Assembly: GCA_011525035.1 (NCBI GenBank)
Contig: WTIZ01000060.1
Location: 1-64,000 of the forward strand
DNA from: Cryomorphaceae bacterium
GTDB lineage: Bacteria > Bacteroidota > Bacteroidia > Flavobacteriales > Schleiferiaceae
Direction of reading: 5' to 3'
DNA length: 64,000 nt
This document shows, piece by piece, positions 23,321 to 37,394 of this stretch. A model generated the notes under the pieces. That model did no database searches. It was not told the DNA's origin and saw only the letters and a program-made list of their open reading frames with translations. Position 1 is the first letter of the stretch. Each line of letters opens with the position of its first letter. Both the position numbers and the translations under genes were made by a program.

Positions 23321-24112
23321 ATGGCAGGAGGTTGGTTAAACGGTGTCAAGCGCGACTTTACAAAAGACGAAGCGCTCAAAGAATACTTCTACTTTTTAGC
23401 AGACGATTCGCTCATCCTGGGGCAGCAGCTCAGCAAGTGGTGTTCAAACGGTCCTGTCTTAGAACAAGATATCGCCATCATTAATACCGCATTGGACCAT
23501 ATTGGCAGGGCTCGATTGCTCTACCAAGAATTGGCTCGGTTAGAGGGTGGTGATGCCACGGAAGATACCCTTGCTTACTTCCGCGATCATTTACAATTCA
23601 AAAACGCGTTGCTCGTTGAACAACCCAACGGTCACTGGGGCGATTCAGTAGTTCGCAGCTTTTTCATTGACACCTTTAACTTCTACTTATACGATGCGCT
23701 AAGGGGCTGCAAAAACGAGGCTCTTAGGGGAATCGCGGAGAAGGCTATTAAGGAGATTTCCTACCAAGCACAATGGAGTGCAGAATGGGTTGTACGCCTA
23801 GGGGACGGAACGGAAGAGAGCCACAACAAGGTTCAAAAAAGCGTAGACGATTTATGGATGTGGAGCGGTGAGTTGTTTGAAGACCACCCAGTGTTCGAAA
23901 TTCTTAAAGAAGAGCTGCCCTCGTTTGTCTCGTTCAAAGAGCAATGGATAAAGAAGGTGGCAGAAGTATTAAAAATGGCAACCCTCATCATGCCATCACC
24001 CGAACTGTGGATGCAGACCGGCGGCCGTTATGGTATTCACAGCGCACAGCTTGGCTACATTCTCGGTGAAATGCAAAGCTTGGCACGCACATATCCAGAC
24101 GCGACTTGGTAG
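23321..24112 (+). CDS. paaC: Phenylacetyl-CoA epoxidase structural subunit PaaC
   Basis: A 263-residue ferritin-like subunit. LADDSLILGQQLSKWCSNGPVLE and ALDHIGRARLLYQ near the N-terminus, with SYQAQWSAEWVVRLGDGTEES later, are typical of PaaC, which pairs with PaaA but lacks the active di-iron site. In many bacteria the next gene is paaD; here the operon ends and a convergent metal-transporter operon follows. A terminator for the operon may be the hairpin at 24237-24273. Confidence 0.94.
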   Translation: MAGGWLNGVKRDFTKDEALKEYFYFLADDSLILGQQLSKWCSNGPVLEQDIAIINTALDHIGRARLLYQELARLEGGDATEDTLAYFRDHLQFKNALLVEQPNGHWGDSVVRSFFIDTFNFYLYDALRGCKNEALRGIAEKAIKEISYQAQWSAEWVVRLGDGTEESHNKVQKSVDDLWMWSGELFEDHPVFEILKEELPSFVSFKEQWIKKVAEVLKMATLIMPSPELWMQTGGRYGIHSAQLGYILGEMQSLARTYPDATW

Positions 24113-24168
24113 TATAGAAACCTAGCGTTGTTGATTTCTTAACATTATTTAACCCTTCGGTTTATTTT

Positions 24169-24185
24169 TTGGCACGTGCTTTGCA
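24169..24185 (+). promoter_or_regulatory. Consensus sigma-54 (-24/-12) promoter
   Basis: TTGGCACG at 24169-24176, four bases, then TTGCA at 24181-24185 match the sigma-54 consensus TGGCACG-N4-TTGCW at every defined position. The -24 GG and -12 GC are 12 bp apart, as required. Transcription would begin near 24196 on the plus strand. It lies 57 bp after paaC with no plus-strand gene in front of it before a terminator. No activator gene (NtrC type) was seen nearby. Confidence 0.7.
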
Positions 24186-24195
24186 CTAACGTATA

Positions 24196-24273
24196 TGACG
24201 ATATAGTTATCGTACGTGTTTTTGTGTTAAGCGAGTGAGGGTTAAAGTGGGGACTTTAGCCCTCTTTTCTTTT
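24196..24273 (+). ncRNA. Candidate sigma-54-dependent small RNA (~78 nt)
   Basis: The unit runs from the predicted sigma-54 start to the end of the T-tract. It contains a perfect 6-bp 5' hairpin (ACGATA-TAGT-TATCGT, 24198-24213), an unpaired T/G-rich linker and a 12-bp terminator stem. No open reading frame is evident. The 3' part is antisense to the last codons of the convergent permease gene (stop at 24242). This is inferred from promoter plus terminator only; no known RNA family was recognised. Confidence 0.5.
24237..24273 (+). terminator. Intrinsic terminator (plus strand) in paaC-permease gap
   Basis: Stem GAGGGTTAAAGT / ACTTTAGCCCTC (12 bp, one U.G wobble on the plus strand) with loop GGGG is followed by TTTTCTTTT. 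The T-tract and the wobble orientation favour the plus strand. It could end paaABC, the candidate sRNA, or both. It overlaps the 3' end of the permease coding region. Confidence 0.85.
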
Positions 24274-25090
24274 GTAGAATAAAAGAAAGCACAAATAACA
24301 AGAAGCTTACGACCGCCATCGATCCGCTGATAGAGGCCTCCAATAGATCAGATACAAAGTACCCTCCTACAGCGCTCAACAACCCCTGAAGTACAATAAA
24401 AAGTACCATAAACCTCAGGTCTTTTGTGAGCAGGTATGCTGTTGCCGCAGGAACTACTAAAAATGCAATGACCAGAATAGCGCCTACACTTTCAAAGCTC
24501 ACCACGGTAGCCACTGAGGTAGCCGCCATTAATGCATAGTGCCAGAGGGTTGTTCTTATACCCACGCTTTTTGCGTATTCCGGATTGAAACTGGTGAGAA
24601 CCCACCCTTTGTAGCCAAGCCAAAAAACCGCTTGGGTAAAAATGAAAAGCACAGACAATGTCCATACAGCACTCGGAGCGCGAAGGCCAAATAGAGTGGT
24701 CTGTTGCAAGGGTACAAAAGCAAGCTCGCCGTGAAGCACACAATCGGCGTCAATATCTGCCTGTCCTGCGTATTTAGTGACCAAAATGACGCCTACTGCG
24801 AACAAGAAGGTGAATACCGTACCCATTGCTGCATCGCCCTGCATTTTTCCCTTAGAAGAAAAGAATTGGATCAAAAACGTAGTTAAAACCCCCATGATAA
24901 TCGCTCCTAATAACAAAGGAAGTGATGCACGAGATCCGCTGATTAAATAGGCAATAACTATTCCCGGCAGCACCGCATGAGAAAGGGCATCACCCATCAT
25001 GCTCATTTTACGCAACAACAAAAGATTCCCTAGCATTCCTGTAGAGGAGGCCACCAAAAAACCGGTTATGATTATCCAAATCGCATCCAT
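24242..25090 (-). CDS. Metal (Mn/Zn/Fe) ABC transporter permease, TroD-like
   Basis: A 282-residue ABC-3 family membrane protein with about eight hydrophobic segments. GMLGNLLLLRKMSMMGDALSHAVLPGIV is the diagnostic N-terminal region of ZnuB/MntB/TroC/TroD permeases. It would form the inner-membrane channel with the neighbouring permease, fed by the upstream binding protein. The metal cannot be told from sequence alone. It follows the fused permease with a 1-bp gap. Its 3' end lies in the plus-strand terminator hairpin. Confidence 0.9.
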   Translation of the reverse strand: MDAIWIIITGFLVASSTGMLGNLLLLRKMSMMGDALSHAVLPGIVIAYLISGSRASLPLLLGAIIMGVLTTFLIQFFSSKGKMQGDAAMGTVFTFLFAVGVILVTKYAGQADIDADCVLHGELAFVPLQQTTLFGLRAPSAVWTLSVLFIFTQAVFWLGYKGWVLTSFNPEYAKSVGIRTTLWHYALMAATSVATVVSFESVGAILVIAFLVVPAATAYLLTKDLRFMVLFIVLQGLLSAVGGYFVSDLLEASISGSMAVVSFLLFVLSFILQKKRGLKSPL

Positions 25091-25091
25091 A

Positions 25092-26396
25092 TTACACTAG
25101 ATCTGGATCTGGAATAATTTCATGAATCTCCAATAGCGGATTGAACCTCGAACACAGCCCTAACTCACGTAGAATTTCTTCTTCAATCTCTGGGGTTAAA
25201 AAGTGTTCCATGGTTTCCGCTTCATCGTGAACCAAATGAACGCTCATTTGCATTCGACGCTGGAGATATACCTCCCATATCTTGTGGCGGCGGTCAATGT
25301 CTGCACCGTAACTCCTACCCGCTGTACTCAAGGTAAATCCCCCATGAACGGGACGAATAAGTCCTTTGCTGCTTAAGCGGCCAACTGTTCTGTTCCAAAG
25401 GTTTGGTTCAAAAAACTGTCGTTGATTAATAGATTCACGAGTAAACAACTTGCCTTTGCCGCGCACTTCATTTTGAACCGCAGCCTTAAGAAGATTTTCT
25501 TCGTTAATTCTTCTGCGAAGCAACAGTTTGTTCCACCGCTGATAGACAATACCCTTGCGCGGTGCGAACAACATCGAAATGAAAGCTATAATACTTACGC
25601 TTACTATGGTCCATGGACCTGTAGGCATATTTGTTTGGGAATAGCTTACAAACGCCCCTATCCAACCTCCTAATGAACCGAAAACACCGCTGATAATAAG
25701 CATGGGAACCAATCGATCGGTCCAAAAGCGAGCTGCTGTCGGCGGTATGATCAAAAGCGCACTCATCATGACAATACCAACAGCCTTAATACCAACACTA
25801 ATGGTAAGTATGGTAATGATGCTTATAAGAGTGTCTATCTTCTTTCTACTAATACCAATGCTCTGGGCGTAATCAGAATTAAAAATAATGGCCTTGACAC
25901 TCCAATAGCTTGCTATGATTAATCCAAGAACTATTAGACTAACGCTTGCAAAAGCAATACTGTCCGCCGGTGTCATTGCCGCGGCATTTCCAAATATGTA
26001 GTGATCTAGCCCGCTTTGATTCCCAACATACCTTGATTGAATCATGGTGAGTAAGACAATACCTAAACCAAAGAAACTTGACAACACGATTGCAAGGGCA
26101 CTATCGCCTTTGATCTTACTTTGTTGTGTGATATAATCCACCACCCAGATACTCATCCAGCCACTGATGGCGGCTCCCAAAATCATCACTGCTGGATTCT
26201 TCACACCGCTTAAAAGAAAAGCAATTAACACACCAGGTAACATGCTGTGTGCAACAGTCTCTCCTACTAGCGTTTTCTTCCTTAGAAAATTAAAGCTACC
26301 CACAGTACCACTCATGCCTCCAAGAAGCACAATAGCGATGACCACATAACGAACGTTTGGGTCTTCTAAGCTGAGGTATTTGAGTAGTACGTCCAA
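25092..26396 (-). CDS. Metal ABC transporter permease fused to DtxR/MntR-like domain
   Basis: A 434-residue fusion. Residues 1-~285 are an ABC-3 permease (FLRKKTLVGETVAHSMLPGVL). Residues ~290-434 resemble a metalloregulator: a winged-helix-like part (FEPNLWNRTVGRLSSKGLI) and a dimerisation/metal part, VHLVHDEAETMEHFLTPEIE, that keeps the His/Glu/Glu/His pattern of MntR/DtxR metal sites. It may sense cytosolic metal and gate transport, or be a vestigial regulator. The start is TTG directly after the binding-protein stop (TAATTG); no ATG precedes residue 29. Confidence 0.85.
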   Translation of the reverse strand: MDVLLKYLSLEDPNVRYVVIAIVLLGGMSGTVGSFNFLRKKTLVGETVAHSMLPGVLIAFLLSGVKNPAVMILGAAISGWMSIWVVDYITQQSKIKGDSALAIVLSSFFGLGIVLLTMIQSRYVGNQSGLDHYIFGNAAAMTPADSIAFASVSLIVLGLIIASYWSVKAIIFNSDYAQSIGISRKKIDTLISIITILTISVGIKAVGIVMMSALLIIPPTAARFWTDRLVPMLIISGVFGSLGGWIGAFVSYSQTNMPTGPWTIVSVSIIAFISMLFAPRKGIVYQRWNKLLLRRRINEENLLKAAVQNEVRGKGKLFTRESINQRQFFEPNLWNRTVGRLSSKGLIRPVHGGFTLSTAGRSYGADIDRRHKIWEVYLQRRMQMSVHLVHDEAETMEHFLTPEIEEEILRELGLCSRFNPLLEIHEIIPDPDLV

Positions 26397-27302
26397 TTAT
26401 TTTAAGTATTCCGCAATGGTCTTAGCGTTAAAGATGAGCATTTTAAAATACGTGTTCTGATCTTCTTCGCTCCCTAAGCTATCGCTTAATAATTCGGGTC
26501 CAATTTTAACTTCAAACCCCTTTGACGCACAACCTCTTTGAACACTCTCCATAGCCTGAGGACTAATGATGTTTTCAAGAAAGATAGCAGGAACCTTCTG
26601 CTCAACGATAAAATCAACCAAATCTGTAATCTCTCGTAGACCAAACTCACTTACAGTACTAGCGCCTTGGAGAGTCTTAACTCGTAATCCATAATCCCGA
26701 GCAAAATAACTGAGTGCATCGTGTGTAGTAATAACCAATCGTTGCTCCTCTGGAATAGTGTTTACGATGTTATTTACCTCTGAAGCTACCGAATCCATCA
26801 CTGAAAAGTATTGGCCCATTTTTAACTCAATACCCGCTGCTTTGTCTGGATAATTTTGGAGCAATTCTCCTACAATAGTTTTAACTGAATTTTGTGCTAA
26901 TTCCTTATCAAACCACGCGTGCGGATCAGTCGATGCTGGGAAATTTGGATCGCGAATAATGAGCTCATTAGGAAAATTCTTAGCAGCATCAATAATAAGT
27001 TTATCCTCCATGTGCTCCAGCACTTCTATAATCTTCCCTTCTAAATGAAGTCCGTGGTAGATGATGACATCTGCCTCGCGCAGCAGGTCTAAATCCTTTT
27101 TTGAAGGTTTATACACGTGTGGATCAATACCTACTTTCAGTAGTGGAATAACTTCCATTTGATCAGTAGCAACATTGCTTACCCAATCCGTCATGATACT
27201 AGTAGTACAAACTACTTTGATTGTATCGTCCGCTGGCTCCACTGTCGGAGCAGCACAAGAAAATAGAACTAGTCCAGTAAGAAAGGAAAGGAGGTATCGC
27301 AT
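26397..27302 (-). CDS. Metal ABC transporter substrate-binding lipoprotein (ZnuA/TroA-like)
   Basis: A 301-residue cluster A-I binding protein. The lipobox is LVLFSC, so the protein is anchored on the periplasmic face. Expected metal ligands appear in DPHVYKPSKKD, DPHAWFD and THDALSYFARDYG, with an acidic LENIISPQ near the C-terminus. No long His-rich loop is present, which fits Mn or Fe slightly better than Zn, but this is weak. The ATG at 27302 is preferred over a TTG nine codons upstream because it gives a proper signal peptide. The next gene is the permease fusion, not the usual ATPase. Confidence 0.9.
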   Translation of the reverse strand: MRYLLSFLTGLVLFSCAAPTVEPADDTIKVVCTTSIMTDWVSNVATDQMEVIPLLKVGIDPHVYKPSKKDLDLLREADVIIYHGLHLEGKIIEVLEHMEDKLIIDAAKNFPNELIIRDPNFPASTDPHAWFDKELAQNSVKTIVGELLQNYPDKAAGIELKMGQYFSVMDSVASEVNNIVNTIPEEQRLVITTHDALSYFARDYGLRVKTLQGASTVSEFGLREITDLVDFIVEQKVPAIFLENIISPQAMESVQRGCASKGFEVKIGPELLSDSLGSEEDQNTYFKMLIFNAKTIAEYLK

Positions 27303-27326
27303 CTTATTTTGATTTATTCTAAATAA

Positions 27327-27346
27327 CAAAAGTAACTCGTAGAGTT
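27327..27346 (-). promoter_or_regulatory. Promoter and palindromic operator of metal transporter operon
   Basis: Minus-strand TACTTTTG (27327-27334) fits TAnnTTTG, 25 bp before the ATG. It abuts a perfect palindrome AACTC-GTA-GAGTT (27334-27346) that lies between the -33 and -7 positions. A repressor bound there would block the promoter; which regulator is unknown. Confidence 0.4.
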
Positions 27347-27435
27347 GTTCGAAACCCTTTGAGAAAGTCTTTTTTTAATCCAACCAGTTACAGCGCTATT
27401 CATCGTATTTTTAAAGGGAATCTATAACCCAATAC

Positions 27436-28977
27436 ATGGAAGCATTTACACCTTCTCAGATCTTAGAATCTTTAAACCTTACTGGTACTATCCACGGAAC
27501 CTCAACAGGTCAACAGTGGATGGAAAACAATGACACAATTACTTCTAACTCTCCTATTGATAACCTGGAATTAGGTAGTGTAAGTATTACGACAAAAGAG
27601 CAATATGATGAAGTAGTTGCTGCCGCCTCTGAAGCATTTAAAACACTTCGTAGTATGCCCGCTCCTAAAAGAGGGGAGCTCATGCGCCAATTTGGAAATG
27701 CCCTACGCGAAGAGAAAGCAGAACTTGGTGCCTTAGTTTCCTTAGAAATGGGAAAAAGCTACCAAGAAGGTTTAGGTGAAGTCCAAGAAATGATTGATAT
27801 CTGTGATTTTGCCGTTGGTCTTTCACGCCAGTTATACGGTTTGACTATCAAAAGCGAAAGAACCGCGCACCATATGATGGAGCAGTGGCATCCACTTGGA
27901 GTTGTAGGTGTAATTTCTGCGTTCAACTTCCCGGTTGCTGTTTGGGCTTGGAATTTTGCATTAGCCGTAGTTTGTGGCAATACTGTAGTTTGGAAAGGCA
28001 GTGAAAAAGCACCATTATGTGCCGTTGCTTGCCAACACATTTGGAATAAAGTTGCTGCAGCAAACAATCTTCCAGAGGGTATTTCTTCAATCATCACCGG
28101 TGATTATACACGGGGTGAGTGGATGACGCACGATGAGAGAATGCCATTAATTTCAGCTACAGGTTCTACTAGAATGGGAAGAATAGTTGGTGCTCAAGTT
28201 GCCTCAAGATTTGGAAAGTCTATTCTAGAATTAGGTGGAAATAATGCCATCATCATCACGCCAACATGTGATTTGAAAATGACTGTTACAGGTGCTTTGT
28301 TTGGTGCAGTTGGAACATGTGGTCAACGTTGTACTTCAACAAGAAGACTTATTATCCATGAGAGCGTTTACGATAAAGTGAAAAACGCTTTGATTGAAGC
28401 GTACGGTCAAATTAAAATTGGTAACCCTCTAGATGAAGGTAATCATGTAGGACCATTGATTGATCAAGATGCTGTCGATGCCTTCCTAAATACCATCAAA
28501 AATGTACAGGTTGAAGGTGGAAAAGTACTCTACGGGGGTGAAGTACTTGAAGGTGGAATTTATAACGATGGATTCTATGTTCAACCTTGTATAGTTGAAG
28601 CATCAAACAATTATGATAGCGTTCAAAAAGAAACCTTCGCCCCTATTCTTTACCTATTGAAATATGAAGGTGAAATAGAAAATGCCATCGCTATCCAAAA
28701 CGATGTGAAGCAAGGCTTGTCCAGTGCAATTATGACAAGTGACGTTAGAGAAGCACACATTTTCTTGAGTGAAAGTGGATCAGATTGTGGTATCGCTAAT
28801 GTGAATATTGGTACCTCAGGAGCTGAAATTGGTGGAGCCTTCGGTGGGGAAAAAGAAACTGGCGGTGGTCGTGAAAGTGGATCAGATGCCTGGAAAGCTT
28901 ATATGCGCCGCCAAACCAATACCTTGAACTACGGTAAAGATTTACCACTTGCACAAGGCATTGAATTCAACATCTAA
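27436..28977 (+). CDS. ALDH7-type aldehyde dehydrogenase (aminoadipate-semialdehyde dehydrogenase-like)
   Basis: A 513-residue ALDH. Catalytic Cys299 is in [12 protein letters not shown] and Glu265 in [23 protein letters not shown] and [18 protein letters not shown] are characteristic of the ALDH7 (antiquitin/AmaB) group, which oxidises 2-aminoadipate-6-semialdehyde in lysine degradation and also betaine or lipid aldehydes. The substrate is inferred from the family. The gene is more AT-rich than genes left of 24 kb. The GSCFA gene follows 3 bp after its stop. Confidence 0.88.
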
Positions 28978-28980
28978 AAA

Positions 28981-29745
28981 ATGATTACAGCAGTAAAAGT
29001 GGGGACAGAAGAACTTTCTGCGCCCCCTTTTTTTTTAGGTATCGGTAGCTGCTTTGTTAGTAACCTCGATCCTTATCTAAACACATGGGGATATAGGTAC
29101 CAATTCAATCCTCTAGGCACTTCTTTTAATCCTATCAGCATCGCAAAACAGCTGCGCTGGATTTTTTGTAATGAGGAATTATCACCCATTTTTAATCATC
29201 AAGGAACCTTTCACCAGCTCGATGCAGCTAATAAGTGGCAGGATGAAAATGAAAAGAGACTTCAAGAAGCATTGGAAAATGCAAGAAATGCGAGCAAGCA
29301 ATATCTCAACCAACCTGGTAAAGAAGTAGTTCTAATTATCTCTTTAGGAACGGCGCATGCTTGGTTTAAAGAAGATCATTTAGTTAATAATTGCCACAAA
29401 TTACCAGGACAATTTTTCCAACGAAGGTTATTGAGTAAAGAGGAAATAATAGCTGAGTGGAAACACACGTTACAGCAACTGCCGGAAAATGTAAAAATCA
29501 TTTTCACTGTGAGCCCGGTACGTTATACACGGATAGGACTTCAGGAAAATTTTCTAGGTAAGTCAATCTTACGAACAGTTATAGAAGATCTGTTAGCATC
29601 TCCAAAAGTTGTGTATTTCCCAAGTTTTGAAATTATCAATGATGAGCTTCGAGATTATTCCTTCTTCGAATCGAATGGTACTCACCCTAATTCAAAAGCT
29701 GTAGAAGTGGTTATGAAGCGATTTAAAGCGTTTTTAGATATTTAA
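28981..29745 (+). CDS. GSCFA domain-containing protein
   Basis: A 254-residue protein. GIGSCFVSNLDPYL near residue 20 is a form of the motif that names the GSCFA family (SGNH/GDSL-hydrolase-like fold), with the Ser as likely nucleophile. A C-terminal NGTHPNSKA provides the expected His. LIISLGTAHAWF in the middle is also family-typical. No signal peptide is visible. The role is unknown; the family may act on acyl or acetyl groups. It overlaps the convergent NUDIX gene by 12 bp at the 3' end. Confidence 0.85.
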   Translation: MITAVKVGTEELSAPPFFLGIGSCFVSNLDPYLNTWGYRYQFNPLGTSFNPISIAKQLRWIFCNEELSPIFNHQGTFHQLDAANKWQDENEKRLQEALENARNASKQYLNQPGKEVVLIISLGTAHAWFKEDHLVNNCHKLPGQFFQRRLLSKEEIIAEWKHTLQQLPENVKIIFTVSPVRYTRIGLQENFLGKSILRTVIEDLLASPKVVYFPSFEIINDELRDYSFFESNGTHPNSKAVEVVMKRFKAFLDI

Positions 29746-30300
29746 TAACCTAGGTCTTAGAATCGATAATTTAAGTACTGCAGCGACGCTAATTGCATCT
29801 GTAATTATTCCATCCATCACTTGCTGGTATAATTCTGAAAAATGAATCTTCTCAACGGTTAGATTTTCAGTGTCTTCAGGTTGACTCTTTCCTTCGGTAA
29901 GATCTTCAGCTATGAAAACAATGGCTTTTTCATTACTTACACTATTACTTAAATGCATCTCTAGAAGCGGCGTCCAGTTCTTTGCAGTATATCCTACTTC
30001 TTCCAATAACTCACGTTTTGCACTTTTTAAAGGATCGGTACCATGTGGTCCCCCACCTTCAGGAATCTCCCAAGAGTAAGTATTTAAAGGAAATCTAAAT
30101 TGACCCACACGCCAGGTGTAACCGTCTTTATCGATTGGTAAAATGCCAATAGCTAAATTTTTAAAGTGAACCTCTCCATAAATCCCAGCGCTTCCACCTG
30201 GAGTAAGGACATCATGATGATTAACTTTAATCCAAGGATTCTCATAAGTAACCTTGGAACCTTTAATTATCCAATCACCTTTATATATAATAGAATTCAT
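29734..30300 (-). CDS. NUDIX hydrolase
   Basis: A 188-residue NUDIX protein. The Nudix box appears as GGGPHGTDPLKSAKRELLEEVGY, cut here as PLKSAKRELLEEVG, with the REXXEE core; the spacing of the first part is slightly altered. YSWEIPEGG precedes it, as in ADP-ribose pyrophosphatase-like members. A substrate such as ADP-ribose or another nucleoside diphosphate derivative is inferred. The start ATG at 30300 abuts the DnaA-trio track of the putative origin. Confidence 0.87.
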   Translation of the reverse strand: MNSIIYKGDWIIKGSKVTYENPWIKVNHHDVLTPGGSAGIYGEVHFKNLAIGILPIDKDGYTWRVGQFRFPLNTYSWEIPEGGGPHGTDPLKSAKRELLEEVGYTAKNWTPLLEMHLSNSVSNEKAIVFIAEDLTEGKSQPEDTENLTVEKIHFSELYQQVMDGIITDAISVAAVLKLSILRPRLLNI

Positions 30301-30704
30301 TTTAAAAGAATATAGTAATAGTAATAGTGTGTTGATAACCGTGATAACTCTGTTATAGTAATCCTATGATTTATGACTTATCAATAGTTGTTATCAGGTT
30401 CAAAGTACTGTAATTACTTAAGTAAATAGAGTTTACTAAGGTTATTCACAGTGTTAATTCATAAAATGAAGTATGGATTGTTAAAGATTAATTCATTTTA
30501 GTACTGTTAGTATGTATCCTTTTCCTGTGGACCGATTTTGAAGAAGTAACAGCAACTATAAACCACTCTTCAAAAAATATTTTCCATATGTAAGAATATG
30601 TGAATAATACAAGGTTGAGTTTTAAAATCCTGTTCATAGGTTGTTCACATTAATCAACTAGGTTATACACAACAATTACGACCTTTGTAAAAACAACAAG
30701 TATT
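30301..30704. other. Putative chromosomal replication origin (oriC)
   Basis: A gene-free AT-rich stretch (one 60-base line is 27% GC) between the NUDIX gene and rpiB. Exact TTATNCACA DnaA boxes lie at 30442-30450 (+), 30599-30607 (-) and 30663-30671 (+). One-mismatch boxes are TTATCAACA at 30330-30338 (-) and TTGTTCACA at 30641-30649 (+). Directly beside the first of these is TAG-TAA-TAG-TAA-TAG (30313-30327), five tandem units fitting the DnaA-trio pattern of a basal unwinding system. mnmG lies 4 kb away and the atp operon 21 kb away, as around many bacterial origins. dnaA itself is not in the window. Confidence 0.75.
30313..30338. promoter_or_regulatory. Candidate basal unwinding element: DnaA-trios plus DnaA box
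   Basis: Five tandem triplets of the form (T/A)A(G/A) at 30313-30327 are separated by 2 nt from a minus-strand DnaA box (TTATCAACA). In the bacterial model, DnaA spreads from the box along the trios in 3'-5' direction and opens the duplex. Confidence 0.55.
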
Positions 30705-31136
30705 ATGAAGATTGCTATTGGGACGGATCACGCTGGTGTAGAATTAAAAGCGGAATTAGTTAAAGTGCTTGAAGCACATGGTGCGGAAGTATTAGATCAA
30801 GGACCTTTTTCTAGCGATAGTGTTGATTATCCAGATTATGGACACAAAGTAGCTTCATTAGTATCTGAGGGTACTTGTTCTCTTGGTGTGGTTATATGTG
30901 GTTCTGGTAACGGAATTAATATGACCGTGAATAAGTATCAAAATATTCGTGGTGCATTATGTTGGTTGCCAGAGATTGCAGCACTAGCTCGCCAACACAA
31001 CAATGCAAATATTATTGCTATTCCTGCTCGTTTTGTGAGTACTGAAGAGGCTAAAGAAATTCTTACTGCTTTCCTTACTAATGAATTTGAAGGAGGTAGA
31101 CATGAACGGAGAGTTGGAAAGATAGCGTGTTCTTAA
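30705..31136 (+). CDS. rpiB: Ribose 5-phosphate isomerase B
   Basis: A 143-residue RpiB/LacAB family protein. GTDHAGVELK at the N-terminus, YPDYGHKVA, and GVVICGSGNGINMTVNK (active-site Cys and phosphate loop) are all present, as is ARQHNNANIIAIPAR. It interconverts ribose-5-phosphate and ribulose-5-phosphate in the pentose phosphate pathway. It begins immediately after the putative origin, and its stop overlaps the convergent lipoprotein gene by 4 bp. Confidence 0.95.
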   Translation: MKIAIGTDHAGVELKAELVKVLEAHGAEVLDQGPFSSDSVDYPDYGHKVASLVSEGTCSLGVVICGSGNGINMTVNKYQNIRGALCWLPEIAALARQHNNANIIAIPARFVSTEEAKEILTAFLTNEFEGGRHERRVGKIACS

Positions 31137-31798
31137 TGAAGCACCTGTATATCTAAAATTCCTTCATAACTCGACATTTGAGTTTGTATATCAAGTGTTT
31201 TTAAACTTTCTAGGTACCTATAGGAATAACCTAATAACATACCTGAAGGTGGGTACACGTTATTAATGTTATTATAAATTTCCAGAGCATCAAGCTCTTT
31301 ACTGTACGCTGGAAAAACAGTACTAACACCCCCAAGTGCTAGTCTTAAATGATCATTGAGACTTCCTTCAAACAAGGGATAAAGTTTGATTTGAGGAGTA
31401 CGAGTATTCATTCCCCAAGAACAAACATGAATACATTCTAACCCTGAGGCAGCAATACCTGTGAGATTAATCTGGGAATCAATATGATTATATAAAGCAA
31501 GTCCGGTAATACCACGAGTTAGTGAATTATCAGCATTCAGCTTTGTTAGAAAATCATCTACCGACTCTTGAATTTCAATTACGTAGTAATCTTTACTCAA
31601 GTATTTAACTAAAGAGTCGTTGGCCGTTATATTTAGATCTGAGAAAAATAGTATCGCAGGATTCTTACGCTTACCTTTTGTTTGAAAAGTGTAGTTATCA
31701 TAAGAGGTTAAAGTACTAGATGTACGACAGCTGGTAAGACATGAAAGAAGGAATAGAAATAAAAGACTTTGTAAGACGTATTTTTTTACGTAAATCAT
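31133..31798 (-). CDS. Predicted lipoprotein of unknown function
   Basis: A 221-residue protein with a good lipoprotein signal: MIYVKKYVLQ, a Leu/Phe-rich core and lipobox LTSC (Cys24). The following sequence alternates hydrophobic strands (AILFFSDLN, YYVIEIQ) and could be a degenerate alpha/beta fold, but no catalytic motif is convincing. Its 5' coding end overlaps the 5' end of the divergent DUF4175-like gene by 58 bp, an unusual arrangement. The start at 31798 is supported by the signal peptide. Confidence 0.6.
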   Translation of the reverse strand: MIYVKKYVLQSLLFLFLLSCLTSCRTSSTLTSYDNYTFQTKGKRKNPAILFFSDLNITANDSLVKYLSKDYYVIEIQESVDDFLTKLNADNSLTRGITGLALYNHIDSQINLTGIAASGLECIHVCSWGMNTRTPQIKLYPLFEGSLNDHLRLALGGVSTVFPAYSKELDALEIYNNINNVYPPSGMLLGYSYRYLESLKTLDIQTQMSSYEGILDIQVLH

Positions 31799-34260
31799 TG
31801 TATTTCAGTTTATTAACTATTTTTCTAAGTGGTTTTACAGCACTCTTTATAACGACTATCAACCTATGGTTTATTCCAGGGTTGTTTAGAATACAACAGG
31901 TAGGTAAGATATATATATTATTGACGCTGTTAACCGCTCTTATATACCCGCTGCGCTACCTATTACTAGCTCTGGGTGTTCGTTTTCTTTCGAATAAATA
32001 TTTAGCGAAGGTAGTTAAGGAATACGATGGGGGTCGATTCAACCAATCTTTAGATTTAGGAGAGAAAGGTGAAATAGGAGAATGGTCATCTCGTATAGCT
32101 TTATTAGAAAGTAAAACCACGTTAGGTTTATTAATAAGTACGATTAAGTATCACTGGACCTATCGTTATATACTTATAGGTGTTACTCTTTTGACTCTGG
32201 TTACACTGTTATTCTATCAACCACTAAAAATAAGTACCGAGGAGTTGATTACGGGACAGTTTCGAACTAGTGAGGATATACGAATATTACCAGATACCAT
32301 TCACACCAAGTTTTACACTGAACCGGACTTGTCGCAGTTTCTAGATTGGAACGTAGAAATAGAAGAAATTCCAAGTGTTGTTATAAAGAACTCTAAACAC
32401 AAGGTTTTAAAGAACGGTAGACTAGTTAAAGAATTATGGATCGTTTGTGATTCTGTAATATCTGTTACGTCGTGGTCAGCTTTTATTACACCGCCGTCTT
32501 ATACAAATATTAAATCTTACCGTTTATCTGATACTGTAAAAGCTATTAGCGGTAGTTCCGTAGCAGTAAACTTTAAGGGTTTACTAACGGAATATTTAGA
32601 ACCAGTTGTTTCACGTGAAACAAAAAACAACCTACCCGAGTCTATTATTACTACGAAAACTGAGTTTTTAGAGTTTAGCGGTTTACATCAGTCATTTAAG
32701 ATACCAGTGCAAGTAACACAGGACCTTCCTCCGAATATTGAGATAATTGAAAACAACTATGATTCTTTAGTAATCAAGTGTACGGATGATTTTAGACTAG
32801 ATAGAGTTCTAATTGAATCACAAGAAATAAGAGGCTTAGGGTTGTTTTCAGTAGAGTGGAAGGATACTAAAGTAAGTATCGAGGCTTATGATAATTTAAA
32901 TCAACGTACTAAGCGGACTGTACAGAGACCACAGATGACTTACCAAGCATTAGAATCGGAGTTGAGTCAGAATGCAACATTAAAAGTTCAACAATTCAAA
33001 TCTTATGTGAATTCTAAGGAACAAGAGATTAAAGACAAACAACCTTTTGAACTCAGAAAGCTATCAGAGAAAAAGCTGGATGAGAATGAAAACATAAATC
33101 CTACTGAGCCCGATCAAGAGAAATTAGATGTTATAGAGCAGGCATTGGATGAGTTATGGGAAATTCAGAAGTTGATCAATGCCTTAGAAATGGTTTCACG
33201 TGAAACTAATGAGCCACTAGATTCAGTGATAAATTCATCCATCAACGAACTGAACACTACAGACAAAGAAGAATTAAAGGAAGAGCTTAATAAACTTGAA
33301 TCGCTCGATAAAAGTGGTGACCAAAGAGAAGAACAAGCGAAAGACAGTGCTCAAAAATTAAAGCAGTTGCTAGCTGAATCCACGGTTGATATACAATCAG
33401 AAAATGTTGAACGCTTAAAAAGAATGCTTAAGAATTCTTGGAAAACCAGTGTTGTTCAAGAGGTAAATAAAGCAATACAATCAGGTTCACGTTACAGAGA
33501 GCAAAGAACATTATTAACCATTCAACGAGAGATTTTAGACTCTCTGGAGATTATTTTAATTACCGATCCAATGTTAGGCAAGGTGTTAAATGATGCAGCC
33601 GTATCTATTACCAATGCAGTGAAAGAGTTAGAGTCCGCACTTTTACTTTCTAAAAATATTGAGGTTAAAACCGCTTATATGGTTACTGCATTAAATGATC
33701 TAAACGCGGTTCTTTATGATATACTTCAGAGCGAAAAACAATCTTTAGCGAGCTCTAAAAAGGAATGTAAGAAAGGCCGACCAGGGCAAACGGGTAAACC
33801 TAGTAAGGGCAAAAAAGGAAACAAACCTTCAAAAAAGAAAAGCTCAGAATCCGGAAAGAGTCAAGGTAAAAAACCAGGCAAAAAAGGTGTTTCTAGAAAG
33901 CCGGCAGAAGAGGGTAAAACGCCAGGCGAACAAGGAAAAGGCACCAAAGAGCTCCTCAAAGAAATAGATAATAAGTTAAATGGGCTAAAGGAATTAGGCG
34001 ATGGTTTACAATCTCAAAAACTGGAAGAATTAAAAAGACAACTTCTATTTGGCACACCCAATGAGGATGAAAGTCAAAGTGAGTTTGAAAACAGATTATG
34101 GGAAAGCTTTGATTCAGAATTTCAAAAGGAAGAACAAGGACAGGAGCGTAAGGCTAATACTGGGGACGAGTCTAGTTCTGAGACTGGGACAGAGATTATT
34201 ATTAAACCTTCAAACAATACCGTAAGCGACTTACCTTTGCCGGTGTTGAAAAAGAAGTAA
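31741..34260 (+). CDS. Large DUF4175-like membrane protein with coiled coil and Lys-rich tail
   Basis: An 839-residue protein. Three hydrophobic segments lie within the first ~165 residues (near 20-45, 57-84, 141-162). A beta-rich middle and then long charged coiled-coil helices follow (about 390-640). The low-complexity Lys/Gly/Ser-rich stretch around 675-735 contains repeated KKGxK-type motifs. Layout matches Bacteroidota DUF4175 proteins, whose role is unknown. The very AT-rich codon use contrasts with genes 10 kb away. ybeY and mnmG follow within 2 bp each, so these three probably form an operon. The ATG at 31741 lies within the divergent lipoprotein gene; a TTG at 31798 is the alternative start. 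Confidence 0.65.
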   Translation: MKEGIEIKDFVRRIFLRKSLYFSLLTIFLSGFTALFITTINLWFIPGLFRIQQVGKIYILLTLLTALIYPLRYLLLALGVRFLSNKYLAKVVKEYDGGRFNQSLDLGEKGEIGEWSSRIALLESKTTLGLLISTIKYHWTYRYILIGVTLLTLVTLLFYQPLKISTEELITGQFRTSEDIRILPDTIHTKFYTEPDLSQFLDWNVEIEEIPSVVIKNSKHKVLKNGRLVKELWIVCDSVISVTSWSAFITPPSYTNIKSYRLSDTVKAISGSSVAVNFKGLLTEYLEPVVSRETKNNLPESIITTKTEFLEFSGLHQSFKIPVQVTQDLPPNIEIIENNYDSLVIKCTDDFRLDRVLIESQEIRGLGLFSVEWKDTKVSIEAYDNLNQRTKRTVQRPQMTYQALESELSQNATLKVQQFKSYVNSKEQEIKDKQPFELRKLSEKKLDENENINPTEPDQEKLDVIEQALDELWEIQKLINALEMVSRETNEPLDSVINSSINELNTTDKEELKEELNKLESLDKSGDQREEQAKDSAQKLKQLLAESTVDIQSENVERLKRMLKNSWKTSVVQEVNKAIQSGSRYREQRTLLTIQREILDSLEIILITDPMLGKVLNDAAVSITNAVKELESALLLSKNIEVKTAYMVTALNDLNAVLYDILQSEKQSLASSKKECKKGRPGQTGKPSKGKKGNKPSKKKSSESGKSQGKKPGKKGVSRKPAEEGKTPGEQGKGTKELLKEIDNKLNGLKELGDGLQSQKLEELKRQLLFGTPNEDESQSEFENRLWESFDSEFQKEEQGQERKANTGDESSSETGTEIIIKPSNNTVSDLPLPVLKKK

Positions 34261-34261
34261 G

Positions 34262-34633
34262 TTGATTCCTGTAGAAGCACATATCATATCAGTTTTTGAA
34301 AATATATATCAAGACCTGAGGTTTGGTGATATCTATATTCATTGGATGAACGATGAAGAGCTTTTAGAAGTAAATAGAAAGCATTTGAATCACGATTACT
34401 ACACAGACATTATTACGTTTGATTACACGCGTCGAAACAAGATATCTGGTGAGCTGTTTATTAGTGAGGATAGAATAGAAGACAACGCTAAGCAGAATGA
34501 TGAGCCTTTGGAGAGAGAACGAAATAGAGTTATCGCCCATGGTATACTTCATTTGATAGGATTTGGCGATAAAACCGACGAAGAGAAAGCGGTAATGCGA
34601 TCAAAAGAAAATGAAATTTTAGACCGACTGTAG
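34262..34633 (+). CDS. ybeY: Endoribonuclease YbeY (rRNA maturation)
   Basis: A 123-residue UPF0054 protein. [14 protein letters not shown] and [15 protein letters not shown] are the family signatures. The usual zinc motif is HGxLHLxGYDH; here the third ligand position holds Asp rather than His, followed by KTDEEKAVM. That variant is, as far as I recall, common in Bacteroidota. YbeY takes part in 16S rRNA 3' processing and ribosome quality control. The start is TTG one base after the upstream stop; no ATG is available before the conserved region. Confidence 0.9.
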
Positions 34634-34634
34634 G

Positions 34635-36488
34635 ATGGTTCTAGATGAAAAATATGATGTAATTGTTGTCGGTGGCGGTCATGCCGGCTGTGAGGCTAGT
34701 TACTGTGCTGCCAAGATGGGTGCTAAAGTGCTACTGATAACGATGAACATGCAGACTATTGGTCAAATGAGCTGTAATCCAGCGATGGGTGGAGTAGCTA
34801 AAGGCCAGATAGTCAGGGAGATAGATGCTTTAGGAGGCGGTTCAGGTACCATTACGGACAAGAGTATGATTCAGTTTAGAATGCTGAACAGAAGCAAAGG
34901 ACCTGCTATGTGGAGTCCCCGTGTTCAAAGCGACCGAATGCTCTTTGCACAGTACTGGAGGGACCTGCTTGAAGAAACTGAAGGCCTGAGCATGTTCCAA
35001 GATATGGTTACTGGAATGCTAGTATCTGACGGCACCGTTCACGGGGTAAAAACTGCGTTAGGAATGACCTTCGAGGCACATACCGTGGTTCTCACCAGTG
35101 GTACATTTATGAACGGCTTGATCCATGTAGGTGATCAAAACTTCGGTGGAGGTAGAGCCGGCGAAAGAGCCAGCACTGGAATTACTGAAGAGCTTATTCA
35201 GCTAGGCTTTGAAGCAGGCAGAATGAAGACGGGTACACCACCGAGAATTGACGGCAGAACTATTGATTTTAATGTCATGGAAGAACAGCCGGGCGACGAA
35301 GATCCTGGACAATTCAGTTTCTTAGGCCAGTCAAAACTAGAGAAGCAAAGGAGCTGTTGGATTACCCACACTTCACAAGAAGTACACGACACCTTGAAAA
35401 AAGGCTTTGATCGCTCTCCCCTATTTAATGGAGCTATTCGCGGTACGGGCCCGAGATATTGTCCGTCAATCGAGGATAAAATTGATCGATTTGCAGAGAA
35501 AAATTCCCACCAAATCTTTGTTGAACCTGAGGGTTGGAACACTGTAGAGGTGTATGTGAATGGCTTCTCAACAAGTTTACCTGTAGAGATACAGTACGAA
35601 GCGTTGCATAAAGTAAGAGGCTTTGAAAACGCGAAGTTCTTCCGCCCAGGCTATGCTATTGAATACGATTACTTCCCTCCTACGCAGTTAAAGCACACAC
35701 TAGAAACGAAGCTAGTAAGTGGTTTGTACTTTGCGGGTCAGATTAACGGTACAACGGGCTATGAAGAGGCGGCCTGTCAAGGTTTGATGGCCGGGGTAAA
35801 TGCGGTTCGTGCTGTACGCGGCGATTCGCCTTTTATTCTAGGTAGAAACGATGCATATATCGGAGTATTGATTGATGATCTCATTACAAAAGGTACTGAG
35901 GAACCGTATCGAATGTTCACTTCTCGAGCCGAATACAGATTGCTTTTAAGACAAGATAATGCTGACCTACGATTGACGTCGTTAGGGTATGAAATAGGCC
36001 TTGCTGGGGAGCAAAGAAAGAAGTTGCTTGAGGAAAAAATCGAGCTCATTGGTTTAGGTAAAACCGCACTAGATAAGAGTTTGCCGTTGGATAAAATCAA
36101 TACAGTCTTAACCGCTCAAGAAGAAAAGCCGGCTAAGGAGAAAACTAAGACGAACAAACTGGTAGCTCGACCTAACATCAAGCTCGAGAATTTTGAGCCA
36201 TATTATTCAGGAGAATCTTGGTGGACAGACGAGGTTGTTGAACAACTAGAAATTGATATTAAGTACGGCGGTTATATTGCGCGCGAAGAGGAAAACGTCG
36301 CGAAGATGAAGCGCTTAAACGATAAGGAAATCCCTGAAAACTTTGACTACTACAAGGTAAAAGGCCTTAGTTTTGAGGGAAGAGATAAGTTAGATGCCAT
36401 TCGTCCAGCCACTATTGCACAGGCCAGCCGTATTAGCGGAATAAGCCAGAGCGATATTCACGTGTTGCTCGTTTATATGGGACGATAA
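34635..36488 (+). CDS. mnmG: tRNA uridine-5-carboxymethylaminomethyl modification enzyme MnmG
   Basis: A 617-residue FAD enzyme. The dinucleotide motif is [12 protein letters not shown] near residue 11, [22 protein letters not shown] is diagnostic of MnmG/GidA, and [21 protein letters not shown] and [15 protein letters not shown] follow. With MnmE it modifies U34 of several tRNAs. It starts 1 bp after ybeY. Proximity to the putative origin (4 kb) recalls the gidA-oriC linkage of other bacteria. Confidence 0.97.
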
Positions 36489-36509
36489 AAGGCAGGACTT
36501 AAATACGCT

Positions 36510-37394
36510 ATGAGAGAAGAGTTGAAACATTGTCCTGTTTGTGAGGCAACGTCGTTTGAGGAGGCAGTAAGCACCGTAGATTATTCTACAAGCAAGGAAG
36601 AGTTCACGGTACAGAAATGTACTGAATGCTCACACCTGTTTACCAGCCCTAGGGTGGTTGAAGCTGAAATTGGACCGTATTACGATAATCCAAATTACAT
36701 CAGCCACACGAACGAAAACAAGAGTCTTTTCGGACAAGTATATCAGGTGTTGCGCGGCGTTAATTTGAGAAGAAAACTTTCCTACGTCAATGCTGTGTTT
36801 ACTGGTCAAGGCACTGTTTTGGATTACGGTTGTGGAACGGGCCAATTCTTAGAAACATTGGTACAAAGCGGCAAAAACGCGGTCGGTGTGGAAATCAACG
36901 ATAACGCTCGTGCTGCTGCTCAATCTTTCGGCTCTGTAAGCGCCTCCATCGAGGGTGTAGAAAAAGGTGTAGAGGTCATTACGATGTGGCATGTATTGGA
37001 GCACATCTACGATCTAAATGGATTACTCTCAAGCTTCAAAGAAAGGCTTCTACCTGGAGGACACCTCGTTATTGCGGTTCCGAACCCTGAGAGTCATGAT
37101 GCCGAGCATTATGGCAAATATTGGGCGGCCTGGGATGTACCGATTCATGCGCACCACTTCACAGAGGCGAGCGTTTCTAAGCTGTTGGGTAACCATGGTT
37201 TTGACTTGCAAAAAGTCATCCCAATGAATATGGACAGCTACTACATCTCGTTACTATCCGAGCAATACAAGAGCGGCACAGAAAACAAAACCCTAGGTCA
37301 CTGGATAAAGGCCCTTTACAGAGGTTTTGTGAGCAATTTGAAAGCCGGTAAAACCAACACAAGCTCAAAGATTTACGTCTTTAAACTGGGCTAG
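36510..37394 (+). CDS. Class I SAM-dependent methyltransferase with N-terminal zinc ribbon
   Basis: A 294-residue protein. Two CxxC pairs (HCPVCEA near 7 and CTECSHLF near 37) form a likely zinc ribbon. The SAM motif is VLDYGCGTGQFLE near 108, with WHVLEHIYD and LLPGGHLVIAVPNPES downstream, as in the Methyltransf_23 type. Members often methylate polysaccharide sugars, quinones or small metabolites; the substrate here is unknown. It follows mnmG by 21 bp and is probably the last gene of that operon. Its stop nearly touches the convergent holB stop. Confidence 0.82.
   Translation: MREELKHCPVCEATSFEEAVSTVDYSTSKEEFTVQKCTECSHLFTSPRVVEAEIGPYYDNPNYISHTNENKSLFGQVYQVLRGVNLRRKLSYVNAVFTGQGTVLDYGCGTGQFLETLVQSGKNAVGVEINDNARAAAQSFGSVSASIEGVEKGVEVITMWHVLEHIYDLNGLLSSFKERLLPGGHLVIAVPNPESHDAEHYGKYWAAWDVPIHAHHFTEASVSKLLGNHGFDLQKVIPMNMDSYYISLLSEQYKSGTENKTLGHWIKALYRGFVSNLKAGKTNTSSKIYVFKLG

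What the first reader, a model, noticed from the sequence alone, without database searches (positions are those of the whole stretch)
30301..30704. Putative oriC with DnaA boxes and a five-unit DnaA-trio track
Three exact TTATNCACA boxes plus two single-mismatch boxes fall in 404 AT-rich, gene-free bases; by chance about 0.01 exact boxes would be expected in random sequence of that length. TAG-TAA-TAG-TAA-TAG sits 2 nt from a box, matching the basal unwinding arrangement. mnmG and the atp operon are near, as at many origins. dnaA is not adjacent, so annotation pipelines that anchor on dnaA may miss it.
Basis: partly seen in the sequence, partly recalled or inferred. Interest (0 to 1): 0.72.

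Follow-up and report, generated by a model that had tools for sequence, protein, structure and literature searches.

The report
Chromosome replication origin far from dnaA
This stretch next to the rpiB gene is very probably where this marine bacterium starts copying its chromosome; it uses a known type of DNA-opening signal, but lies far from the initiator gene (dnaA) that annotation tools normally use as the landmark.

Summary
30301-30704 is gene-free, 27% GC, and carries three exact TTATNCACA boxes plus two one-mismatch boxes. TAG-TAA-TAG-TAA-TAG ends 2 bp from a box. It is the only place in the held genome with three exact boxes within 250 bp. That 35-bp module (30313-30347) is the most conserved part of the gap across 14 species of the genus (0.91 against 0.68), and similar modules precede rpiB in most other genera tested. 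In three complete chromosomes of the family GC skew flips sign at rpiB, and the cumulative minimum lies within 0.2 kb of the module; three further genomes agree within 80-kb stretches. dnaA is 39-46% of the circle away. Verdict: a genuine, rpiB-linked oriC of the known DnaA-box/DnaA-trio (BUS) kind, supported only by computation. An unexpected extra: in three genera, synonymous GC drops steeply around the origin (GC3 about 0.5 to 0.3 in the window's genus) with little change in protein composition. I found no report of this in limited searches.

The parts
30301..30704 (.). putative oriC: intergenic, 27% GC, DnaA-box cluster
30313..30327 (+). five DnaA-trios TAG TAA TAG TAA TAG (5'-TAR-3' = 3'-RAT-5' on this strand); in other genera the last trio position falls in a GC-rich spacer, so four trios plus a 5-nt spacer is an alternative reading
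30330..30338 (-). DnaA box 1, TTATCAACA, trio-proximal
   Evidence: conserved in most species of the genus
30339..30347 (-). degenerate second box TTATCACGG, co-oriented and directly abutting box 1; the TTAT-type 9-mer at this 9-bp step recurs in most of the genus and in several other genera
30442..30450 (+). distal DnaA box TTATTCACA (exact)
30599..30607 (-). distal DnaA box TTATTCACA (exact)
30641..30649 (+). distal DnaA box TTGTTCACA (one mismatch)
30663..30671 (+). distal DnaA box TTATACACA (exact), close upstream of rpiB
30705..31136 (+). rpiB (ribose-5-phosphate isomerase B), the constant neighbour of the module across the family
29734..30300 (-). NUDIX hydrolase gene, left neighbour in the genus only
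24000..37000 (.). low-GC trough centred on the module (GC about 47% to 34%; GC3 about 0.52 to 0.29)

Best explanation
This is the chromosomal replication origin of a marine Flavobacteriales bacterium (Cryomorphaceae-like). DnaA binds the tandem boxes at 30330-30347 as duplex DNA, helped by the distal boxes at 30442-30671. It then assembles into a filament that runs onto the adjoining TAG/TAA trios of one strand, melts the AT-rich DNA toward the NUDIX gene and allows helicase loading. Shown here: the sequence architecture, its selective conservation, and its place at the skew switch point in relatives. Inferred from B. subtilis work: DnaA binding, unwinding and helicase loading.
For: Box cluster unique in the genome and beyond chance. 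The trio + tandem-box module is the most conserved 35 bp of the gap across 14 species, with similar modules upstream of rpiB in most other genera tested although the left neighbour changes. GC skew switches sign at rpiB in three complete chromosomes, with the cumulative minimum 151-185 bp from the approximate module position, and the minimum is 409-548 bp upstream of rpiB in 80-kb stretches of three more genomes. Architecture and polarity fit the published BUS description.
Against: The window's own genome is fragmented, so its whole-chromosome skew cannot be drawn; its contig minimum is 2.8 kb off the module, as in five related species. G002 lacks a clear module and its contig minimum is 16.6 kb away. 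The second box is far from consensus. No replication, DnaA-binding or unwinding data exist here.
Confidence: 0.93

Rival explanations
1. The cluster is a DnaA titration or regulatory site (datA/DARS-like, or DnaA control of rpiB and the NUDIX gene), and the true origin lies elsewhere, for example by dnaA.
For: DnaA boxes also occur at non-origin sites (general knowledge); one box lies about 30 bp upstream of rpiB.
Against: The skew switch sits at this locus in six genomes of five genera. The dnaA contig has no comparable box cluster and no skew minimum at dnaA. dnaA is on the far side of the chromosome in complete relatives.
Confidence: 0.04
2. It is an origin, but the unwinding site is not the trio track: DnaA opens another AT-rich part of the gap, and the TAG/TAA run is conserved for another reason, such as the NUDIX promoter or leader.
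For: The track lies just upstream of the NUDIX start codon, and the whole gap is AT-rich.
Against: The trio track persists in genera where the left neighbour is a different gene, and stays at a fixed short distance from the box pair.
Confidence: 0.12
3. Chance cluster of box-like words in AT-rich DNA.
For: Box words are at background genome-wide, and AT-rich DNA yields degenerate boxes easily.
Against: None of 20,000 simulations reached three exact boxes; conservation across species and coincidence with the skew minimum in six genomes.
Confidence: 0.01

Closest known systems
Bacillus subtilis basal unwinding system (DnaA-box#6/#7 + DnaA-trios, incC)
   Same: Two co-oriented DnaA boxes, a short spacer, then repeated trinucleotides of 3'-RAT-5' type on one strand, with further boxes at a distance (PMC8287927, PMC6669920, PMC10721633).
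   Different: Not next to dnaA. Here the better box is the trio-proximal one, and the far one is degenerate, whereas in B. subtilis the consensus box is #6. The spacer in this genus is only 2 bp if five trios are counted.
Origins predicted far from dnaA (DoriC/Ori-Finder entries, e.g. Synechococcus lividus; gidA-mioC origins of enterobacteria)
   Same: Box cluster in a gap away from dnaA; in the gidA-mioC case predicted with trios as well.
   Different: The constant neighbour here is rpiB; gidA/mnmG is 4 kb away and not adjoining.

Membership tests
Bacterial chromosomal oriC (DnaA-dependent) | cluster of DnaA boxes in an AT-rich intergenic region | tested here: met
Bacterial chromosomal oriC (DnaA-dependent) | located at the GC-skew switch of the chromosome | tested here: met
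   met in three complete relatives and in local stretches of three more; within 2.8 kb on the window's own 118-kb contig
Bacterial chromosomal oriC (DnaA-dependent) | replication starts there in vivo | not testable with these tools
   needs marker-frequency sequencing
Bacterial chromosomal oriC (DnaA-dependent) | a DnaA protein is encoded in the genome | tested here: met
Basal unwinding system (BUS) | at least three trios with central A within 16 bp of a DnaA box (criterion of PMC8287927) | tested here: met
   five trios, 2 bp from a box with one mismatch
Basal unwinding system (BUS) | tandem co-oriented box pair, the weaker box with at most 4 mismatches | tested here: met
   TTATCACGG has 4 mismatches to TTATCCACA, directly abutting box 1 (read; recurrence); just inside the limit
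Basal unwinding system (BUS) | DnaA-dependent strand separation that needs the trios | not testable with these tools
   needs biochemistry
dnaA-adjacent oriC | dnaA next to the box cluster | tested here: not met
   dnaA on contig C50; 1.57-1.84 Mb from rpiB in complete relatives

The most novel reading that the evidence does not exclude
In three small-genome genera of this family (g1, g16, g17), initiation at oriC leaves a roughly symmetric footprint several kb wide (much wider in g16) in synonymous base composition, an origin-centred GC3 trough. It would come from AT-biased mutation, reduced repair or GC-biased conversion, or selection for easy melting near the origin, and would be a little-described property of bacterial origins.
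Probability: 0.3. Interest if true: 0.6.

Novelty: new member of a known kind. Interest (0 to 1): 0.42.

Why it matters
It gives an uncultured marine lineage a computationally well-supported replication origin, linked to rpiB and not to dnaA. One complete relative's record even starts at dnaA, 1.84 Mb from its skew minimum, so coordinates and growth-rate estimates anchored on dnaA would be wrong for such genomes. It adds a clear trio+tandem-box module, conserved above its surroundings, in Flavobacteriales. The origin-centred GC3 trough, if general, would be a natural record of what initiation does to nearby DNA.

Tried and rejected
A regex scan for trio+box upstream of rpiB in 78 named genomes (many Flavobacterium and Sphingobacterium) matched well only in this genus: the rpiB link is not shown to be phylum-wide, although the strict regex also misses divergent boxes such as TTACTAACA. 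G354 of another family has an rnr / box module / rpiB arrangement, but its local skew minimum is 73 kb away in a 160-kb stretch, so it is only suggestive. The automatic module search picked wrong sites in some distant loci (L031, L039, L040, L042); I read L039 and L042 by eye. No unusual single-strand fold (z -0.75) and no Rfam match. Literature searches found no rpiB-oriC report and no description of an origin GC trough, but the library holds only open-licence papers and only titles and abstracts of most hits were looked at.

Full report
OBSERVATION. The window is G000:C46:1-64000 of a 1.99-Mb, 66-contig genome. The 404 bp lie between a NUDIX gene (minus strand) and rpiB (plus strand). They are 27% GC and hold three exact TTATNCACA boxes and two one-mismatch boxes at the stated places. 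TAG TAA TAG TAA TAG (30313-30327) is followed by TG and then TGTTGATAA, the reverse complement of TTATCAACA. Expected exact boxes are 0.056 under a Markov model of the region itself; none of 20,000 simulations had three. In the whole genome such boxes occur at background rate (51 against 53 in a reversed-pattern control), and only this spot has three within 250 bp.

Directly after box 1 comes CCGTGATAA, i.e. TTATCACGG, a weak box in the same orientation at an exact 9-bp step. The composition (trios, short spacer, two co-oriented boxes) is that of the B. subtilis BUS as described in PMC8287927 and PMC10721633; that the strand polarity also agrees rests on the 3'-GAT-5' consensus quoted there plus my own knowledge of the B. 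subtilis sequence, since the figures are not held. Three of the distal boxes share an AGG-TTATNCACA-like context.

CONSERVATION. A DNA search of 88 family genomes found the locus only in the genus, in 14 genomes; in nine of them the match was essentially the first 50 bp, the trio+box end. Aligning the 14 gaps, the best 35-bp window is 30313-30347 at 0.91, against 0.68 overall. rpiB was detected in all 14 loci and NUDIX in all but L015. In other genera, trio tracks followed by a short, often GC-rich spacer and TGTTNATAA-like boxes lie roughly 300-470 bp upstream of rpiB, usually with a TTAT-type 9-mer one 9-bp step on, while the left neighbour differs. G002 has no clear module, and G038 and G054 are weaker.

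SKEW. In complete chromosomes G014 (4.04 Mb), G017 (3.44 Mb) and G026 (4.00 Mb), twenty 20-kb samples each show skew turning from negative to positive at rpiB (G017 is noisier far from rpiB). Within 120 kb the cumulative minimum is 151-185 bp from the approximate module position used in the script. In 80-kb stretches of G031, G004 and G038 the minimum is 548, 521 and 409 bp upstream of rpiB; the modules lie about 414, 409 and 382 bp upstream (the G038 site is uncertain). In the window's genus the minimum is consistently 2.6-2.9 kb to the left, where two right-pointing genes (aldehyde dehydrogenase, GSCFA) occupy the interval; I attribute the shift to gene orientation, which is inference.

dnaA. 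It is at C50:45865-47262 in the window's genome, without a comparable box cluster on that contig or a skew minimum at the gene. In the complete relatives it is 1.84, 1.58 and 1.57 Mb from rpiB, 46, 46 and 39% of the circle. The DnaA protein has the usual domains.

ORIGIN-CENTRED GC TROUGH. In six species of the genus, GC per 2 kb falls from about 42-48% to 28-36% near the module and recovers within roughly 6-8 kb (in G073 the contig ends 8 kb to the left). In the five with gene-level analysis, GC3 falls from about 0.4-0.55 to 0.19-0.31 within 3 kb, while GC2 and amino-acid composition change much less. Genera g17 (GC3 0.58 to 0.39) and g16 (about 0.5 to 0.21, much broader, with GC2 also falling) show it too; g3, g4, g7 and g13 do not, or hardly, and g14 is weak (of the two g7 genomes only G014 had gene-level GC3). 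The genes that I could name are ordinary ones; the aldehyde dehydrogenase gene has GC3 0.30 here against 0.34-0.57 in most other genera and 0.26 in g16, where it again lies in the trough. The three genera with a trough have the smaller genomes (about 1.3-2.6 Mb), a correlation from few lineages that are not phylogenetically independent. How rare such troughs are genome-wide could be checked on only two contigs (lowest 4-kb window 0.352 in the trough; 0.406 is the lowest elsewhere). The cause is unknown.

JUDGEMENT. It is a new member of a known kind (oriC with DnaA boxes and trios), in a place linked to rpiB. Whether DoriC already lists this position for any relative could not be checked. Function is inferred. 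Taxonomy is taken from record titles of the closest loci (Bacteroidetes, Flavobacteriales, Cryomorphaceae).

Noticed in passing
24000-37000 in the window; G074, G064, G066, G075, G073, G038, G054 around rpiB: Steep origin-centred drop in GC and GC3 in three genera with smaller genomes, absent or weak in five other genera of the family; cause unknown.
   Followed up: partly
G014, G017, G026 (complete relatives): dnaA lies 39-46% of the circle from rpiB/oriC, i.e. toward the terminus; the G014 record begins at dnaA.
   Followed up: partly
L018 / G354:C1:334416 (another family of the order): rnr / TTATCACGGTTATCAACA box pair / rpiB arrangement with the pair inverted relative to rpiB, and a second box pair in the other orientation nearby; local skew gives no clear support.
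   Followed up: partly
L002 (dnaA of the window's genome): The DnaA helix-turn-helix motif reads GNKDHATVLHAC; from memory E. coli and B. subtilis have RDHTTV there, which might relate to the degenerate TTATNMACA boxes of this family.
   Followed up: no
L004 (G073) NUDIX gene: The NUDIX gene beside the origin matches in four separate tblastn pieces, as if broken by frameshifts in this species or assembly.
   Followed up: no
31741-34260 (+) and 31133-31798 (-): The 839-aa and 221-aa predicted proteins next to rpiB have no Pfam match at E 1e-4.
   Followed up: no
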